Part shown: one piece after another, positions 1,402-38,128 of the stretch
How the letters are laid out: each line of letters starts with the position of its first letter
Position numbering within the stretch: position 1 is the stretch's first letter
Assembly: GCA_017398585.1 (NCBI GenBank)
Contig: JAFQFS010000121.1
Span: 1 to 38,128, forward strand
Length of the DNA stretch: 38,128 nucleotides
Origin: Clostridia bacterium
GTDB lineage: Bacteria > Bacillota > Clostridia > Oscillospirales > CAG-272
Reading direction: 5' to 3'
The notes under the pieces: generated by a model
The model's database searches: none
Seen by the model: only the letters and a program-made list of their open reading frames with translations
Told to the model about the DNA's origin: nothing
Position numbers and translations under genes: made by a program

Positions 1402-1444
1402 GTGCAGTGCAAATCAAAACAAACGATTTGCACTGCACTTTGTT
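1402..1444 (+). terminator. Intrinsic terminator after the XRE regulator
   Basis: A perfect 14-bp stem (GTGCAGTGCAAATC at 1402-1415 pairing with 1425-1438) with a 9-nt loop is followed by TTTGTT. It begins 6 bp after the stop codon. Confidence 0.7.
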
Positions 1445-1477
1445 CCTATAACAGATTAAAGCTTTTTGAAAAGGGGT

Positions 1478-1515
1478 TCGGGGAAAAACTTTTTCTCGAA
1501 AAAGTTTTTCCCCGA
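1478..1515. repeat. P palindrome (solo copy P1)
   Basis: Arms of 18 bp (1478-1495 and 1498-1515, starting TCGGGGAAAAAC) pair perfectly around a 2-nt loop. The usual P leader (AAAGCTTTTTGAAAAGGGG, 1459-1477) precedes it. It lies between the convergent XRE gene and ackA, so it may act as a two-way terminator there, although the U-tract lies inside the stem and not after it. Confidence 0.8.
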
Positions 1516-6857: not shown

Positions 6858-7104
6858 TCGGGGAAAACTTTTTTGAAAAAAAGTTTTCCTCAAGTTGCTT
6901 TGCAACTTGTAACCCCTTTCAAAAAACTTTAATCTGGGAAAAGGGAAGACAACGTCTGTGCAGATTTTCAGTAATACACCATTTTATCAGCTTCACGCCG
7001 GAGAGGTATTCCAAATCTGCACCCAACTTTGTCAAATATATCAGTCGGAAAGTTTTTGCGGAGGGGTTCGGGGAGGTGCTTTTTTCAAAAAGCATCTCCC
7101 CGAT
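6858..7104. repeat. P element, complete pair (copy P3)
   Basis: The left palindrome (arms 6862-6874 and 6877-6889) is followed by a small hairpin CAAGTTGC/GCAACTTG, then AACCCCTTTCAAAAAACTTT. The middle holds a nested stem, GTGCAGATTT (6958-6967) with AAATCTGCAC (7013-7022), and outside it GACAA/TTTGTC. The right palindrome has arms at 7068-7084 and 7087-7103 with one G-U pair. It fills the whole gap between the metG stop and the tatD start. Confidence 0.85.
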
Positions 7105-9065: not shown

Positions 9066-9083
9066 GATTTACTCCTGTGGATG

Positions 9084-9216
9084 GTGAAATACCCGCATGG
9101 CGGGTGTGAAATTGCTGCGCAGTGAAATTCATGCTTCGCATGAGTGAAATATTCTGTATGAGTTACGCGGTAACTCATACAGAATGTTATGGAAGAAAAC
9201 TGCCGGAGCAGTTTTC
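9084..9216. repeat. Hairpin array with GTGAAAT spacers
   Basis: Four copies of GTGAAAT (9084-9090, 9106-9112, 9122-9128, 9144-9150) separate short hairpins: ACCCGC/GCGGGT (9091-9105), the CTGCGCAG palindrome (9115-9122) and TCATGC/GCATGA (9129-9143). A perfect 16-bp stem with 3-nt loop follows (9151-9166 with 9170-9185), then GAAAACTGC/GCAGTTTTC (9195-9216). It lies between nagA and metG, hence in the leader of metG if transcribed from nagA. It does not resemble a T-box or SAM riboswitch. Confidence 0.75.
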
Positions 9217-10504: not shown

Positions 10505-10923
10505 GGAAGAAAAACGCCTAAAGGCGTTTTTCAAAATTAATGTCCCTACGCGGGACGGCGCAAAAGAGGTCCTCGCGCGGGACCTCTTTTGAATCACCCG
10601 CGCCAGAGAAGGGGAAGTGTCCCCTTCTCTGGACTCTTCCCCTCGGATTATGCGCTAACCGCGGGGGCTGAGGTTTTCGTCCGGCTTCTCGCCGTAAGCA
10701 TAAATCTGTTCCGCGGTTAGCCTATATCTGCGCAACCCTTGAACCGTATGTACGTGTCGATGGTTGTCTCAACTGCTCAGCTTCAAGAACGCAGAGGTGT
10801 CCAGAGGATACTTCCTCTGGTCGCGGAGATTCACAAGAGGCCCGCGATCGGGTCTCTTGTGCGCCCGCCCCGCGCAGGGGCATAAAAATTTGAAAAAAGC
10901 TCCCGCAGGAGCTTTTTTCTTCC
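10505..10923. repeat. S element copy A (mirror-symmetric hairpin train)
   Basis: From the outside in: GGAAG, an A-rich hairpin AAAAACGCC/GGCGTTTTT (10510-10531), GTCCC-TACGC-GGGAC (10542-10556), a 12-bp stem CAAAAGAGGTCC (10561-10591) and a 13-bp stem CCAGAGAAGGGGA (10603-10632). The core is GCTAACCGCGG (10654-10664) pairing with CCGCGGTTAGC (10711-10721). The same four kinds of hairpin then follow in reverse order, ending in CTTCC at 10919-10923. The left and right sets differ in sequence but not in pairing. Short reading frames inside have no coding character. Confidence 0.8.
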
Positions 10924-12639: not shown

Positions 12640-12750
12640 CGTGCAGCTTGAGTTTCTTCAAATCTGCACAAAATTTTGTCCTTCCATTTGTTTAAAAGTT
12701 TTTGAAAAGGGGTGCGGGGAAAAACTTTTTCCAAAAAGTTTTTCCCCGCA
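12640..12750. repeat. P element, right half (copy P4)
   Basis: It has the inner P stem relics (GACAACGTGCAG ... AATCTGCACAAAATTTTGTC) and then the standard palindrome TGCGGGGAAAAACTTTTT with an 18-bp perfect arm (12713-12730 and 12733-12750, 2-nt loop). The left palindrome is missing, and the hairpin array stands in its place. The element abuts the 3' end of the isomerase-like gene. Confidence 0.75.
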
Positions 12751-13680: not shown

Positions 13681-13694
13681 GGTGAGTGTTTTTA

Positions 13695-13911
13695 TCGGGG
13701 AAAACTTTTTTGAAAAAAAGTTTTCCCCGAACCCCTTTCAAAAAACTTTAAACTATATGGATTTATATAAATTGCAGCTTTTGTAGTTCAGCTGGAATTT
13801 TCGGTTTGACACACGCGTTTGTCTGGTTTTGTACCAACGAGATTGATATTTACCCCGTCCGAAAGTTTTGGAAGGGGTCCGGGGAAACTTTTTTCAAAAA
13901 GTTTCCCCGGA
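13695..13911. repeat. P element, complete pair (copy P5)
   Basis: The left palindrome is TCGGGGAAAACTTTTTT with 17-bp arms (13695-13711, 13714-13730) followed by ACCCCTTTCAAAAAACTTT. The right one has GAAAGTTTTGGAAGGGG before 16-bp arms (13878-13893, 13896-13911). The middle is A/T-rich and diverged. It fills the gap between rsmI and the isomerase-like gene. Confidence 0.85.
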
Positions 13912-14812: not shown

Positions 14813-15298
14813 TTTCTCGGGAAAACCTTTTGGCAGAAAGGTTTTCACCGAACCCCTTTCAAAAAACTTTAATATGGGTGAATGGGATGGAGTTCGTGCG
14901 GTCTGCACAGTACCTTATCAAGCCATCTGTCTGAAAAGGTTTTGGAAGTGGGGACGAGACTTCGTGAGGCAATGCTGTCAACTTAAGAAGAAACGAGGTT
15001 ATCCAAATGCCTTCCTTGGAAGACCGGAACGGTCTTCAGAGGAAGGGGGACCACGAAGTGCCGGAAGGAGAATGCGGCACAATCGTTTTGAGTCGCTATA
15101 TTTTGTAATCAAAGCAGAAACTACAGCCGCATGCCTTCGGCAGAAAGCTGAAATCCATCGTGACGCGGTCTCCCTCAGTCACTCCGTGACAGCTCCCTCC
15201 CGGAGGGAGCCTCATTAAGTTTCTCTTAAGTTGACACCATTGACTTCGTGAGGAAGTCTCAGGGGAGAACCTTTTCCTTAAAAAGGTTCTCCCCGATA
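14813..15298. repeat. P element (copy P6) interrupted by a T element
   Basis: The left half is an imperfect CGGGAAAACC...GGTTTTCACCG palindrome with AACCCCTTTCAAAAAACTTT and a GTCTGCACAG inner arm. The right half begins GAAAAGGTTTTGGAAGTGGGG and ends in the palindrome GGGGAGAACCTTTT (15262-15275 with 15281-15294). The hairpin of the right half is split at 14969/15243 by the T element. It lies between trmN6 and rsmI. Confidence 0.8.
14970..15242 (+). mobile_element. T element copy T2 (MITE-like) with direct-repeat flanks
   Basis: The ends are CAATGCTGTCAACTTAAG (14970-14987) and its inverted match ending in CTTAAGTTGACACCATTG (15225-15242), 17 of 18 bases paired. The 11-bp direct repeat ACTTCGTGAGG lies immediately outside both ends (14959-14969 and 15243-15253). 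Inside are hairpins GAAGACCG/CGGTCTTC, TGCCTTCGGCA and CTCCCTCCCGGAGGGAG. No transposase is encoded, so mobility would be in trans. Confidence 0.8.
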
Positions 15299-16468: not shown

Positions 16469-16911
16469 GTCCTCTCTGCGCGGACGGCGATCTGTTGATT
16501 GTCTGCGAGTGCAGACTAGACTTTGTCCGGCGCGGACGGCGCACAAGTGGGCGCGTCGTCGCCCTCTTGTGAATCTCCGCGACCAGCGGTGGGGATCCTT
16601 CCCCTCCTCTGGACTCTTCCCCTCGGATGATGCGCTAACCGCGAGGGGCTAAGGATTTTGTCCGGCTTCACGCCGAAAGTATAAATCTGTTCCGCGGTTA
16701 GCCTATATCTGCGCAACCCTTACACCGGCAGGTGTGTGTCGGGGGGGTTCTCAACTATTCAGCTTCAAGAACGAGAGGTGTCCAGAGGATACTTCCTCTG
16801 GTCGGGGTGATTCACAAGAGGGCGACGACTCGCCCTCTTGTGCGCCGTCCGCGCAGGACAAAGTCAAGTCTGCACTCGCAGACATTCAACAGATCGCCGT
16901 CCGCGCAGGAC
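16469..16911. repeat. S element copy B
   Basis: It carries an extra outer layer: GTCC...GCGCGGACGGCGATCTGTTGA at the left and the inverted match ending in GTCCGCGCAGGAC (16899-16911) at the right. Inside come GTCTGCGAGTGCAGAC (16501-16516) against GTCTGCACTCGCAGAC (16868-16883), the ACAAG...CTTGTG stems, CCAGAGGA stems, and the core GCTAACCGCG (16634-16643) with CGCGGTTAGC (16693-16702) followed by CTATATCTGCGCAACCC. The left CCAG stem is partly decayed. It lies between ricT and the ferredoxin. Confidence 0.8.
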
Positions 16912-20256: not shown

Positions 20257-20480
20257 CCGGGGGACACTTTTTTGAAAAAAAGTGTCCCCCGGACCCCCCA
20301 CAAAAAACTTCAATCTATATAAAAAGACAAGGAGCGTGCAGATTTGGAATACCGGAGCGGCTATCAGTTTTACAGCGGTTCCGGCAGCCTGAATCTGCAC
20401 ATACCTTGTCTTTTCTATTTGTTTGAAAGGTTTTTCGGAGGGGTTCGGGGAACCCATTTTCCTTAAAAAAGGGTTCCCCG
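20257..20480. repeat. P element, complete pair (copy P9)
   Basis: The left palindrome is CCGGGGGACACTTTTTT (20257-20273 with 20276-20292). The nested inner stem is very clear: AAAAGACAAGG (20322-20332) and GTGCAGATT (20336-20344) pair with AATCTGCAC (20392-20400) and CCTTGTCTTTT (20404-20414). The right palindrome is CGGGGAACCC/GGGTTCCCCG (20446-20455, 20471-20480). It separates two convergent genes. Confidence 0.85.
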
Positions 20481-22599: not shown

Positions 22600-23298
22600 G
22601 GGAGACGGTCGCTTTCTTGAAAGAAAGCTCCGCAAAGAACTTCAATCTGTGTAGCCATTTGGTATGGCTGATATGATTTAGTGGGGGAAAAAGAAGGAAT
22701 TTTCGGTGGAGTTCGGCTTAAATTTGTTAGACCTATAGCCGTGGAGAGATAAAGATCATGAGGAATAGTGGAGCGACTTCTCAAAACTCCGTTTTGTTCA
22801 GCGCTCGACACTTCCGTATACTGGATATAGTGCGCCCTTTTAGAATTCAGCTACATAAACTCTTACACCGCCCGAGTTGCGGAGCAACTCGTCTTGGCAT
22901 GCCGCCGTTCGTGCTTTGCGTTAGTCAAAACTTGACGTCAGCCGCTCTAACTGACAGAAGCGAGGACGGCGGCAGCCAAGCCGAGCGGGAAATCTCTCTA
23001 CGTAGAGTGATTGCGAACGATAGCACGAAATCGAGGTTAGTCTATACGGCGTGGGAAGTCATGGGTCTAAAAGACTTCCTACGGAAGTCTTATGTGGCCC
23101 CTGACTTCCGTCTCCACCCTTTCTCAGGATTTGGATGTCTATATTTTGTCAGCTGGGACTAACTAAATGGCTGCGCACAGACCCATCCAAAATCCCCTAA
23201 AAACAAAAAATCTGCACAGTCCGAATCACTGTAACAGCCCAAAGAGGTTTGGAGGGGAGTCTGAGGGGGACCTTTCCTCTGAAAAGGTCCCCCTCAGA
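22600..23298. repeat. L element copy L1 with about 400-nt conserved core
   Basis: The left arm is GGGGAGACGGTCGC...CTCCGCAAAGAACTTC. The right arm is CCAAAGAGGTTTGGAGGGG followed by TGAGGGGGACC/GGTCCCCCTCA (to 23298). The core from about 22700 to 23165 (GAGGAATAGTGGAGCGACTT, TGACGTCAGCCGCTC, AGCCAAGCCGAGCGGGAAAT) recurs at 29310-29740. A 134-codon frame at 22758 is partly conserved in the other copy but has no SD, and the copies differ by whole hairpins, so a structured RNA or DNA is more likely than a protein. It lies between the hydrolase and fucosidase genes. Confidence 0.75.
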
Positions 23299-29194: not shown

Positions 29195-29866
29195 TTCCTG
29201 AAGGGGACCTTTTCAGAGGAAAGGTCCCCCTCAGACTCCCCTCCAAACCTCTTTGGTCTGCGGAAGCCGGTTTGGGCAGTTGATATGGGAGAGAGGGGAA
29301 AAGGGGAAAATTTTTGGTGGAGTACGGCTGAAATCGTTCGGGCGGAAGCCATATAGTCATAAAAATCATGAGGAATAGTGGAGCGACTTCTCAAAACTCC
29401 GTTTTGTTCAGCGCTCGACCCTTCCGTATACGTGATCTAGTACGCCCTTATAGAATTCAGCTACTTTACGTCTTACACCGCACTCCTTGGCTGCCGCCGT
29501 TCGTGCTTTGCGTTTGTGCAAACTTGACGTCAGCCGCTCTGACTAACAGAAGCGAGGACGGCGACAGCCAAGCCGAGCGGGAAATTGCTTTCCGTAGAGA
29601 GATTGCTAACGATTGCACGATATTGAGGTTATCCCATACGGCGGGGGAAGTCAGGGTCTCGGCGGTCCCTGACTTCCGTCTCCACCCTTCCTCAGAAATT
29701 GGATCGCTCCCATTTTGTCAGCTGGGACCAACTAAATGGCTGCGCACAGACCCATCCAAAACCCCCCTAAAAACGAACCCATATAAGCCAGACCAAATGG
29801 CTACAACAGATTAAAGTTCTTTGCGGAGCTTTCTTTCAAGAAAGCGACCGTCTCCCCTGAACGTAT
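29195..29866. repeat. L element copy L2 (arms swapped relative to L1)
   Basis: The left arm here is AAGGGGACC...GGTCCCCCTCAGACTCCCC with CCAAACCTCTTTGG. The right arm is AAAGTTCTTTGCGGAGC, CTTTC-TTGAAAG-type stem and GACCGTCTCCCC. The core (GGTGGAGTACGGCT, GAGGAATAGTGGAGCGACTT, TGACGTCAGCCGCTC, AGCCAAGCCGAGCGGGAAAT, AACTAAATGGCTGCGCACAG) runs in the same direction as in L1. The L1 core has an extra CGAGTTGC/GCAACTCG hairpin that is absent here. It lies between the divergent kinase and uracil-DNA glycosylase genes. Confidence 0.75.
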
Positions 29867-32433: not shown

Positions 32434-32836
32434 CAGGACGTCTGCGAGTGCAGACTGACTCTTTGTCCTGCGCGGACGGCGCACAAGAGGGCGAGTCGTC
32501 GCCCTCTTGTGAATCACCCCGACCAGAGGAAGTGTCCTCTGGACACCTCTCGTTCTTGCAGTCGGGCAGTTGAGACATCCACCGACACGTACATACGTTT
32601 CAAGGGTTGCGCAGATATAGGCTAACCGCGGAAAAAGCCCAACTTTCGGCTACAAAATAAACTTTATCCTCAGCTCCCGCGGTTAGCGCTGCGTCTGAGG
32701 GGAAGAGTCCAGAGGAGGGGAAACTTCCCCTCCTCTGGCGCGGGTGATTCAAAAGAGGTCCCGCGCGAGGACCTCTTTTGCGCCGTGCCGCGCAGGCACA
32801 TAAAATTTGAAAAACGCCTTCAGGCGTTTTTCTTCC
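32434..32836. repeat. S element copy C (opposite orientation)
   Basis: Compared with copies A and B the core is reversed: GGGTTGCGCAGATATAGGC precedes GCTAACCGCGG, and CCGCGGTTAGCG follows. The left end is GTCTGCGAGTGCAGAC, GTCC-TGCGC-GGAC, CACAAGAGGGCG/CGCCCTCTTGTG and CCAGAGGA/TCCTCTGG. The right end is CCAGAGGAGGGGAA/TTCCCCTCCTCTGG, CAAAAGAGGTCC/GGACCTCTTTTG, GTGCC-GCGCA-GGCAC and AAAAACGCC/GGCGTTTTT, ending in CTTCC. It lies between the aldolase and flavoprotein genes. Confidence 0.8.
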
Positions 32837-34296: not shown

Positions 34297-34518
34297 GCGG
34301 GGAAACCCTTTTTGAGGAAAAGGGTTTCCCCGCACCCCTTCCGAAAACCTTTTCAAACAGAAAAAAGACAATGTCGGGTGCAGACTTTTCGAATAAGGTA
34401 CGGTTTACAGACGGTACCTTGTTCCGAAGGGTCTGCACCCAGCTTTGTTATTATATATTGTATAAAGTTTTTTGAAAGGGGTTCGGGGAAAACTTTTTTT
34501 CAAAAAAGTTTTCCCCGA
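34297..34518. repeat. P element, complete pair (copy P12)
   Basis: The left palindrome is GCGGGGAAACCCTTTT (34297-34312 with 34318-34333). The inner stem GGGTGCAGAC pairs with GTCTGCACCC around a GGTACGG/ACGGTACC loop stem. The right palindrome TCGGGGAAAACTTTTTT has 17-bp arms (34483-34499, 34502-34518). It lies between two convergent genes and ends 5 bp before the sigma-factor stop codon. Confidence 0.85.
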
Positions 34519-34523
34519 TTCCT

Positions 34524-36152
34524 CTACTTTTCCACAACCAGCAGTGCCGCCGGAACGGGATCGGTGATATTCTTCCGCAGAATCCCGTCTTCGGCCGCGT
34601 GATAGAGAAATGCCATCGGCAGGCTGTCGCGGCTGAGAAAATACCGCTGCCATTCCGGGACACTCGTCAGATGCGGCGGCAGCTTCATGCGCGTACGGCG
34701 GATCATGTCCGCCATGCTTCCGCTGAGCTTGTCGAAAATCGGTCTGCCTATCTCGTGTGACAGCCGTTTTTCCGCGCGGTATTCCTCACCCGTCAGGACG
34801 GGGAGATCGAGCGAGACCGCACCGTCCTTTTTCAGCATGCCGTGTCCGATCATTACGTCCGCTCCCTCCAGCACGCCCGCTTCGATGGTGCCGGAACGGA
34901 TGCCGCTGTGCAGTTCGTACATCCACTTGATGTGCTCTTTTTGCGTATAATTGTACGGGATTTTGCCGAGCTTCGTGGAGTACGAGCGGAACCAGATGCG
35001 CTTCGTGTCGTACAGATTCAGTACGTCCTCGCCGAACTCGCCGTCGACGCAGTAGTTCCAGTATTCCTCATCGCTCGTCCAGTCGTAACCGGACGGGTAG
35101 CGGTTGCCCATCGCGAGCCAGCGTCCGCCGTTTTTTCGGTAGGGATATTCCTCGGACGCCACCGGCTTATGCACCAGTCCGGCGGCGTCGAGAACCATGT
35201 TCAGCATCAGCGAAACGGCATAGTGCAGCTCGAGTTTCGGACGGCACGATTCCTCCTGACGGAGGTAATAATCCGTCCCGCGGAGTGCTTCCATTGCGGC
35301 GCGGAGGTCGTCACGGATGTCGGAGTAATGTTCATCGGAATAGCGGAGCTGTTCGCGGAAGTTCGCGTAGAAATCCTCGCGGGTGAACTGGATGAAATCG
35401 CTGTAGACCTTTCCGCCGTCGGTGCGCGCCATCAGTTCGGCGCTGACAAGACGGCGGACGATCGGTTCGACAAACGCGGCGGGTGTGCCGAGGGCTTTTG
35501 CAATCTCGACTTCGGTGAGCGGTTTTTCGTACGCGACAATCAGGATGTTCTGCGTGAGTGCGTCGTCGTAGCCGACGAGGGAGAACGGTTCGCCGTCAAG
35601 CCCGCAGCTTCCCGAACAGGAAAGACGTAAAATTTCGGGTTCGTAACTCTGTTTCGTGTAGGTTTCCATATCCTCTACTCCTTTTCTGATCTGCAGACGT
35701 CCCTTGTTCAGCCGACTTTTGACGGTTCCCGCGGGAATTCCCATGGCTCCGGCGATGGTTTCGATGCTCTCGCCGTGCAGGTAGAACCGTACGAACACCT
35801 CGCGGTGGGTTGCCGCCAGATAGCCGATCCCGCGGCGGATGGCTTCCAGCTGTCCGTCGGTTTCGTCCGCCTCATCGGTTTCCGCCGGTTCGCGGAACGA
35901 TCCGTCTTCCGTCCACGCGTCGTAGCTGATGGTCGGACGGCGGTATTTTTCGCGGAGACGGTCGCAGTGCTTGTTCGAGAGGATGCGGCAGAGCCAGCTC
36001 CACAGATGGTCGGGCTGATACCCGCGCGAGAGACTCTGCCATGCGGCAAGAAGTGTCTCCTGCGCGATGTCTTCGGCATCGTCGGCGTTTCCGGTCAGGC
36101 GGAGCGCGGCGTAATAAAGGGAGTCTGTATAATCGGTCAGTTGATGTTTCAT
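34524..36152 (-). CDS. ECF-type sigma factor fused in frame to a winged-helix protein
   Basis: The protein has 542 aa. Residues 1-161 are a sigma-70 family ECF factor: region 2 (YYAALRLTGNADDAEDIAQE, LWSWLCRILSNKHCD) and region 4 (HREVFVRFYLHGESIETIAG, GIPAGTVKSRLNKGR). Residues 162-542 begin METYTKQ and contain a winged-helix segment (LTEVEIAKALGTPAAFVEPI, then VYSDFIQFT) and a long helical C-terminus of no known family. A strong internal SD and ATG lie exactly at the junction, so the second part may also be made alone (34524-35669, 381 aa). AAAGGAT precedes the first ATG, and a cre-type palindrome lies just upstream. A much longer open frame reaching 37484 crosses the divergent gene and is rejected. 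Confidence 0.82.
   Translation of the reverse strand: MKHQLTDYTDSLYYAALRLTGNADDAEDIAQETLLAAWQSLSRGYQPDHLWSWLCRILSNKHCDRLREKYRRPTISYDAWTEDGSFREPAETDEADETDGQLEAIRRGIGYLAATHREVFVRFYLHGESIETIAGAMGIPAGTVKSRLNKGRLQIRKGVEDMETYTKQSYEPEILRLSCSGSCGLDGEPFSLVGYDDALTQNILIVAYEKPLTEVEIAKALGTPAAFVEPIVRRLVSAELMARTDGGKVYSDFIQFTREDFYANFREQLRYSDEHYSDIRDDLRAAMEALRGTDYYLRQEESCRPKLELHYAVSLMLNMVLDAAGLVHKPVASEEYPYRKNGGRWLAMGNRYPSGYDWTSDEEYWNYCVDGEFGEDVLNLYDTKRIWFRSYSTKLGKIPYNYTQKEHIKWMYELHSGIRSGTIEAGVLEGADVMIGHGMLKKDGAVSLDLPVLTGEEYRAEKRLSHEIGRPIFDKLSGSMADMIRRTRMKLPPHLTSVPEWQRYFLSRDSLPMAFLYHAAEDGILRKNITDPVPAALLVVEK
35667..35683 (-). promoter_or_regulatory. Internal Shine-Dalgarno and ATG in the sigma-factor fusion
   Basis: On the minus strand AAGGAG (35678-35683) lies 8 bases before an in-frame ATG (35667-35669). 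The SD bases encode Lys-Gly-Val in the fused frame. The position at the end of sigma region 4 and the start of the winged-helix part suggests a former, or still used, second gene start. Confidence 0.6.
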
Positions 36153-37925: not shown

Positions 37926-38128
37926 CAGGACGTCTGCGAGTACAGACTGCATGTTTTTTGCGCACCTGCGGTGCGGAAGGTGGAAAAATGACTTTTCAAG
38001 TCATTTTTCTAAAGTTTTATGTGCCTGCGCGGCACGGCGCAAGAGAGGACCGGTCGCGGTCCTCTCTTGACTCTCCACGACCAGAGAAGGGGAAGGCTCC
38101 CCTTCTCTGGACTCTTCCCCTCGGATAT
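37926..38128. repeat. S element copy D (cut by window edge)
   Basis: It begins CAGGAC, GTCTGCGAGTACAGAC, then a GGAAGGTGG segment, AAAAATGACTT/AAGTCATTTTT, GTGCC-TGCGC-GGCAC, AAGAGAGGACC/GGTCCTCTCTT and CCAGAGAAGGGGA-type stems, and is cut before the core. It shows the GTCTGC hairpin and the A-rich hairpin together at one end, which the other copies show separately. Confidence 0.75.

What the first reader, a model, noticed from the sequence alone, without database searches (positions are those of the whole stretch)
10505..10923. S elements: mirror-symmetric hairpin trains of about 420 bp with compensatory changes, four copies in 38 kb
Copies at 10505-10923, 16469-16911, 32434-32836 and 37926-38128 share one plan: a series of four or five hairpins, a core GCTAACCGCG...CGCGGTTAGC followed by CTATATCTGCGCAACCC, then the same hairpins in reverse. 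Stems differ but still pair: the GC-rich end stem is GTCCC/GGGAC, GCCCC/GGGGC, GTCC/GGAC or GTGCC/GGCAC; the next is AAAAGAGG-, ACAAGAGGG- or AAGAGAGG-type. Such covariation means that folding is under selection, or that arms are copied onto each other. I do not recognise a known RNA or insertion-sequence family.
Basis: partly seen in the sequence, partly recalled or inferred. Interest (0 to 1): 0.75.

Follow-up and report, generated by a model that had tools for sequence, protein, structure and literature searches.

The report
Twin knotted-RNA repeats in bacteria
Scattered through this bacterium's genome are short non-coding elements, each made of two back-to-back copies of a knotted RNA fold, and sister species can keep them at the same places with completely rewritten interiors.

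Summary
The S elements are about 420 bp inverted-repeat elements: 44 core matches in the 3.18 Mb source genome and 99 arm matches. Each arm is a structured RNA module read outward from the core towards a terminator-like hairpin. The hairpin ACAAGAGG..CCUCUUGU carries a covarying pseudoknot: its loop pairs with the linker before it. Non-Watson-Crick pairs are mostly G.U on the outward strand, seldom A.C, in both arms; a neighbouring repeat family counted in a similar way shows no such bias. Module pairs point away from each other in 48 of 50 cases. The module is found in 16 of 25 genomes of the genus, in some only weakly, and in Agathobaculum. Elements often sit at the same intergenic sites in sister genomes, but with genome-specific cores; empty sites exist too. 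No Rfam, phage or plasmid match, and no Y1 transposase or reverse transcriptase in the assembled host genome, was found. Expression and function are untested.

The parts
10505..10923 (+). complete element, copy 1
   Evidence: core on + strand
10509..10532 (.). left cap hairpin GAAAAACGCC..GGCGTTTTTC
   Evidence: sequence; not listed as terminator-like (the right cap is)
10540..10607 (-). left arm RNA module (H1, H2, linker), outward
   Evidence: model R1, 70.6 bits
10542..10556 (-). H1 hairpin of left arm
10561..10591 (-). H2 hairpin of left arm
10575..10581 (-). H2 loop side of pseudoknot (GCGCGGG on +)
   Evidence: complementary to 10597-10603
10597..10603 (-). linker side of pseudoknot (CCCGCGC on +)
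10603..10632 (-). H3 hairpin of left arm
10654..10721 (+). core: GCTAACCGCGG ... CCGCGGTTAGC
10801..10820 (+). H3 hairpin of right arm
10816..10883 (+). right arm RNA module, outward
   Evidence: model R1, 75.7 bits
10821..10826 (+). linker side of pseudoknot (TCGCGG)
10832..10861 (+). H2 hairpin of right arm; loop side CCGCGA 10842-10847
10867..10881 (+). H1 hairpin GCCCC-GCGCA-GGGGC
10892..10919 (.). right cap, terminator-like on both strands
16469..16911 (+). complete element, copy 2 (ends in other hairpin modules, not in the usual caps)
16522..16587 (-). left arm module, copy 2
   Evidence: 64.3 bits
16797..16862 (+). right arm module, copy 2
   Evidence: 80.7 bits
32434..32836 (-). complete element, copy 3
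32462..32527 (-). arm module, copy 3
   Evidence: 80.7 bits
32734..32801 (+). arm module, copy 3
   Evidence: 67.1 bits
38019..38085 (-). left arm module of copy 4, element cut by the window end
   Evidence: 72.8 bits

Best explanation
Each S element is a non-coding, gain-and-loss-prone intergenic element that carries two divergently pointing copies of one structured RNA module. Shown: the plan, outward core - H3 - linker - GAUUC/GAGUC - H2 - GCGCC - H1 - A/U stretch - cap hairpin; the linker x H2-loop pseudoknot; a pairing bias that marks the outward strand in both arms; tens of copies per genome; shared sites between sister species; genome-specific interiors; empty sites. Inferred: an RNA is made outward on each side and stops at the cap, which also shields neighbouring genes; the fold is recognised by a factor acting in trans; resident copies are overwritten by the genome's current type (gene conversion or re-insertion at occupied sites), giving concerted evolution at fixed places. 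Half elements behind stop codons look like derived or ancestral units.
For: Pseudoknot: 64 distinct linker/loop pairs, mean complementary run 6.5 vs 4.96 +- 0.14 when re-paired (largest of 300: 5.48), duplex energy -11.2 vs -7.8 +- 0.28; 5 of 6 pseudoknot pairs with changes on both sides. Strand: G.U 51 vs A.C 0 in H2, 30 vs 1 in the pseudoknot; with equal acceptance right arms 11:0, left arms 7:0, other genomes 46:3; control family 24:28. Orientation: modules 150-500 bp apart are -/+ in 20 of 20 (G000), 14 of 15 (G004) and 14 of 15 (L084-L163) parsed pairs. Shared sites: an R1 match within 1 kb of the orthologous gene in 13 of 26 (G004) and 7 of 25 (G022) places, 0.9 to 1.8 expected. Core scores: within G000 130, within G004 137, orthologous G000-G004 13.2, non-orthologous 13.2. 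Empty sites. Context 16 tandem, 6 convergent, 5 divergent of 27.
Against: No sigma-70-like promoter inside copies 1 and 3, the two scanned, so the start of an outward RNA is unknown. The caps would also stop transcripts entering from outside, and the left cap of copy 1 is not called a terminator. Outward folding is lower in energy than inward in the three arms folded, but for copy 3 the z-score is not (-7.72 outward, -7.88 inward). No target-site duplication was established. No mobilising protein was found. In the Agathobaculum arms read, the pseudoknot is not evident. 9 of 25 genus genomes have no R1 match and several have only weak ones. No expression data.
Confidence: 0.5

Rival explanations
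1. Two-way 3'-end cassette: whichever transcript crosses the element, the last arm it copies is in the outward sense and is followed by a cap; the pseudoknot train protects or shapes the 3' end. The element has no RNA gene of its own.
For: No promoter-like site inside copies 1 and 3; cap terminator-like on both strands. Of 17 R1 matches without a partner match, 11 of the 15 with an upstream gene call lie co-directional to it, among them genes read as fructose-bisphosphate aldolase and xanthine phosphoribosyltransferase (names recalled).
Against: Those 17 are not all single: L249 has a second arm on reading, L239 and L246 a D-type end, L251 and L252 a D-like one by eye; without these five it is 6 of 10. 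A cap is met first by any entering transcript; full elements also lie between divergent genes, 5 of 27.
Confidence: 0.2
2. REPIN-like single-strand DNA element moved by a Y1 (RAYT/IS200) transposase; the structure is that of ssDNA.
For: Inverted pair of palindromic units, extragenic, many copies, genome-specific populations; resembles REPINs of PMC3116915 (passages). G.T tolerance in ssDNA would also give strand bias.
Against: No Y1_Tnp match in G000 nor in element-rich G003, G011, G012, G015, G019; matches in G004 and G022 are weak. The structured strand differs between the two arms. G000 is only 73.6% complete.
Confidence: 0.08
3. A multicopy small-RNA family that titrates or is processed by an RNA-binding protein, dispersed by past duplication, not mobile now.
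For: RNA-level pairing bias, cap hairpins, many copies.
Against: Interior replacement at shared sites and empty sites point to turnover.
Confidence: 0.12
4. No selection: hairpins arise and are kept by copying errors at palindromes (template switching, arm-to-arm copying).
For: Short palindromes are inserted inside several hairpins.
Against: Does not explain G.U without A.C nor loop-linker covariation; arm types within an element are independent.
Confidence: 0.03

Closest known systems
REPINs / BIMEs with RAYT transposases (Pseudomonas, enterobacteria)
   Same: extragenic, inverted pair of palindromic units, many copies, genome-specific populations
   Different: longer (about 420 bp; REPIN length recalled as near 100), several hairpins per arm, covarying pseudoknot with a fixed strand, caps; no Y1 transposase found in the host genome
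Pneumococcal BOX/RUP and Bacillus cereus bcr repeats (recalled; BOX paper PMC3049150 seen in a search listing only)
   Same: small intergenic repeats, BOX being modular
   Different: two divergent arms of one plan, pseudoknots, caps at both ends
MITEs (recalled)
   Same: short, non-coding, inverted-repeat ends, presence/absence
   Different: no target-site duplication or parent transposon established; pairing bias at RNA level
Type III toxin-antitoxin RNA (ToxI) (recalled)
   Same: pseudoknots in a row and a terminator
   Different: not identical tandem repeats; toxin genes were not searched for
Palindromic candidate structured RNAs of the human microbiome (PMC8040213, passages read)
   Same: intergenic, found on both strands, often with terminators
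   Different: defined by a structure seen on both strands; here each arm has a fixed polarity. Its tables were not checked, so one of the 250 could overlap

Membership tests
REPIN/RAYT | inverted pair of palindromic units in extragenic space | tested here: met
REPIN/RAYT | Y1/RAYT gene in the same genome | tested here: not met
   0 matches to PF01797 in G000 (73.6% complete); 8 of 25 genus genomes positive, by eye unrelated to element number
REPIN/RAYT | GTAG-type tag at the foot of the palindrome (recalled) | not tested
   no scan was made
MITE | discrete insertion with empty sites | tested here: met
   sites chosen for lack of an R1 match: both flanks aligned with -6 to 164 nt between them in 9 of 13 comparisons, 8 different elements
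MITE | target-site duplication | tested here: inconclusive
   AAAATT near both edges at one site only (L193/L273/L303); no systematic test
MITE | autonomous parent with the same ends | tested here: inconclusive
   the one wide -/+ pair examined, 1.4 kb, encloses a gene read as ribonuclease Z (naming recalled), not a transposase
retroelement / SINE-like | reverse transcriptase in the genome | tested here: not met
   0 PF00078 matches in G000, and none in G003, G012, G019, G022; 12 of 25 genus genomes have one
any Rfam 15 family | covariance-model match over the element | tested here: not met
   only tRNA, ZMP-ZTP and Gut-1, all elsewhere, reach a cut-off
intrinsic terminator | GC hairpin plus T run at the ends | tested here: inconclusive
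known IS element | match in ISfinder | not testable with these tools
   database not held

The most novel reading that the evidence does not exclude
A new class of bacterial element: paired divergent non-coding RNAs whose pseudoknotted fold guides the element's own spread, copies homing onto sites already held by their kind, so that every genome rewrites its resident copies to one current type.
Probability: 0.2. Interest if true: 0.9.

Novelty: new variant of a known kind. Interest (0 to 1): 0.72.

Why it matters
Small dispersed repeats of bacteria are mostly discussed as DNA palindromes. Here the strand of the wobble pairs suggests that RNA is what selection sees, in two opposite directions from one centre. 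Sites shared by sister species but carrying unrelated interiors make a natural system for asking how dispersed repeats are homogenised in bacteria. Relatives in a cultured type strain, Agathobaculum desmolans ATCC 43058, make expression tests possible.

Tried and rejected
Rfam at gathering and permissive thresholds gave nothing over the elements. The two viral-contig matches of that pattern score 10.6 bits with R1 and are taken as chance hairpins, as are Sulfurospirillaceae (12.3 bits) and Calothrix (17.8 bits, E 0.0016). No phage or plasmid match by distant blastn. RAYT and reverse-transcriptase mobilisation were tested and not supported. The neighbouring D-type repeats (CGGGGAAAAC...GTTTTCCCCG) were tested as a second arm type: no loop-linker covariation (run 8.96 vs 9.24 re-paired) and no strand bias, with a rough pattern of their own and 25 distinct units; they were not merged, although hybrids with one D-type end exist. 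An alifold of 22 copies of the unmirrored 5' domain found little structure. Literature searches; nothing matching in the listings. The first gene-context script chose wrong strands because of long antisense frames and was replaced by a codon-usage caller (recovers 19 of the 21 window genes it was trained on). On recount, five supposed single arms turned out not to be single, and the cassette rival was lowered from 0.25 to 0.2.

Full report
Observation. The window is contig C119 of a 3.18 Mb, 178-contig genome, 73.6% complete. The named copies exist. A blastn search gave 102 alignments in the own genome, with only 40 of 96 first-look candidates scored; the core pattern gave 44 places, 0 for the control. 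I fetched 37 copies, some partial, and read them oriented. By contig name and length, G022 is RGIG7288 (JAFYOX, water buffalo cecum) and G004 is SIG618 (SVQN, Oscillospiraceae, origin not shown).

Anatomy. Read outward from the core, each arm is: H3, a linker, GAUUC or GAGUC, hairpin H2 (typically ACAAGAGG..CCUCUUGU), GCGCC, a small hairpin H1 (GUCC-GCGCA-GGAC type), an A/U stretch and a cap hairpin with an A run before and a U run after. H1 comes as GTCCC/GGGAC, GTGCC/GGCAC, GCCCC/GGGGC, GCCAC/GTGGC and GTCC/GGAC. By eye, the GCGC of the H1 loop and the linker before it are also complementary; this was not tested separately. Copy 2 ends in other hairpin modules instead of the usual caps.

Pseudoknot. 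The linker before H2 is complementary to the H2 loop in many unrelated versions, for example GCGCGGG/CCCGCGC, UUGCGG/CCGCAA, GAGCGG/CCGCUC, GUGCC/GGCAC, GCGGC/GCCGC, GUCGA/UCGAC. The 120 distinct modules were collected with a pattern that asks for a paired H2 stem but not for the pseudoknot. They hold 64 distinct linker/loop pairs; the mean longest complementary run is 6.5 against 4.96 +- 0.14 when loops are dealt out anew, the largest of 300 shuffles being 5.48. One pair, GUG/UGU, fails, and one reaches only 4. On alignment A1 (36 of the 120, chosen by me for diversity) the six pseudoknot columns pair in 81.9% of cells and five of the six have changes on both sides; sliding the partners lowers the score for the whole structure from 0.469 to at most 0.137. 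Registers differ by a base between versions.

Which strand. In the H2 stem of the 120 modules there are 51 G.U and 0 A.C cells on the outward strand; in the pseudoknot 30 and 1. The first screen tolerated G.U more than A.C, so the stem count was repeated with equal treatment: right arms 11:0 in 16 modules, left arms 7:0 in 14, other genomes 46:3 in 112. Many of these cells are inherited, not independent. The D-type repeat, counted in a similar way with a rough pattern of its own, gives 24:28 in 25 units. So the selected strand is opposite in the two arms: outward on both sides. RNA is the natural reading; single-stranded DNA is not excluded.

Spread of the module. Model R1 finds 7 strong matches in the window, 99 in the genome, and matches in 16 of 25 genus genomes, own included, 1 to 104 each; G006, G008 and G016 are weak. 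In an even draw of 394 genomes of the order, with stricter filters, 7 further genomes match at 1e-5, six of them of one genus. One of the six, G297, shows the same printed sequence and score as a locus of Agathobaculum desmolans ATCC 43058 (L259 and L146). R1 matches come in -/+ order about 300 to 400 bases apart in L085, L094, L098, L129, L146 (Agathobaculum records) and L174 (same matches as L267 from G297). L169 has -/-/+ and L268 -/+/+. My simpler parser found just one pair in that set, -/-. The pseudoknot is not evident in the arms read there.

Orientation and context. Neighbouring modules 150-500 bp apart are back to back in 48 of 50 parsed pairs of the three other sets; the exceptions are one +/+ and one +/-. 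Of 27 elements with both neighbours called, 16 lie between tandem, 6 between convergent and 5 between divergent genes; 3 more lacked a neighbour. Seventeen R1 matches without a partner match were read: of 15 with an upstream gene call, 11 point the same way as that gene. But L249 has a second arm on reading, L239 and L246 a D-type end, and L251 and L252 a D-like one by eye; without these it is 6 of 10.

Same sites, other interiors. Pieces of 28 genes flanking elements were sought in two sister genomes; 25 were found in G022 and 26 in G004. An R1 match lies within 1 kb in 7 and 13 of these, read by eye; one search was cut, so these are lower bounds. The expectation is 0.9 to 1.8, under my estimate of 40 and 48 elements or with every match counted apart. 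Among 15 site comparisons the clearest edge is at L193/L273, where the non-coding flank is conserved up to the first base of the cap; at several others the flank resumes some tens of bases outside the caps, with different hairpins between. Cores at orthologous G000-G004 sites score 13.2 on average (8 sites), like non-orthologous ones (13.2, 64 pairs), against 130 and 137 within each genome; G000-G022 17.7 vs 17.3; G004-G022, whose core types are partly related, 54.0 vs 51.8 (3 sites each). Thirteen comparisons at sites chosen for lack of an R1 match: in nine, covering eight elements, both flanks align with -6 to 164 nt between them, so the site is empty; one of these holds a D-type hairpin instead and one (L303) keeps a single cap-like hairpin; four align on one side only.

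Mechanism. The shown facts are an element with discrete edges that is gained or lost, is often kept at shared places, has a genome-wide type, and holds two outward folds. The inferred steps are outward transcription, termination at the caps, recognition of the fold in trans, and overwriting of resident copies. No promoter-like site was found inside copies 1 and 3; two lie just outside copy 1. This keeps the read-through cassette alive as the main rival. Y1 transposase and reverse transcriptase are absent from the assembled part of this genome and from several element-rich sisters.

Comparison. REPINs (PMC3116915, passages) are the closest in population biology but the transposase test is not met here. 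PMC8040213 (passages) reports 250 palindromic candidate RNAs in the human microbiome, 230 with predicted terminators; its tables were not consulted. Other names in the closest-known list are recalled.

Noticed in passing
window 1426-1514, 6858-7102, 12662-12748, 13694-13908, 14817-14879, 20258-20462, 34298-34546: A second dispersed family (D-type): TGCAC..TTTGT..AAAGTTTTTTGAAAGGGGTTCGGGGAAAAC...GTTTTCCCCG. It can replace one arm of an S-like element (L068, L239, L246; degenerate in L251, L252) but shows no strand bias.
   Followed up: partly
L015, L018, L024, L030, L037 and others: Short palindromes (GAGACACTTCGTGTCTC, GGAGGTCACGTAGTGACCTCC, GAGTTCG..CGAACTC) are inserted inside hairpin loops and stems, as if small hairpins themselves moved.
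   Followed up: no
window 9082-9155 +: Gut-1 RNA (RF01706) at 50.3 bits, just over its cut-off of 50.
   Followed up: no
window 22737-23064 and 29347-29656: Two long similar stretches, 88% alike, flanked by further shared repeats.
   Followed up: no
G000:C43:19550-20991 (L248): Two half elements point away from a gene read as ribonuclease Z, as if the gene sat inside a split element.
   Followed up: partly
L237, L243, L253, L255: A GCTAAGAGCTAATAGTGAATAGTGAATAGC-type sequence recurs before a single arm.
   Followed up: no
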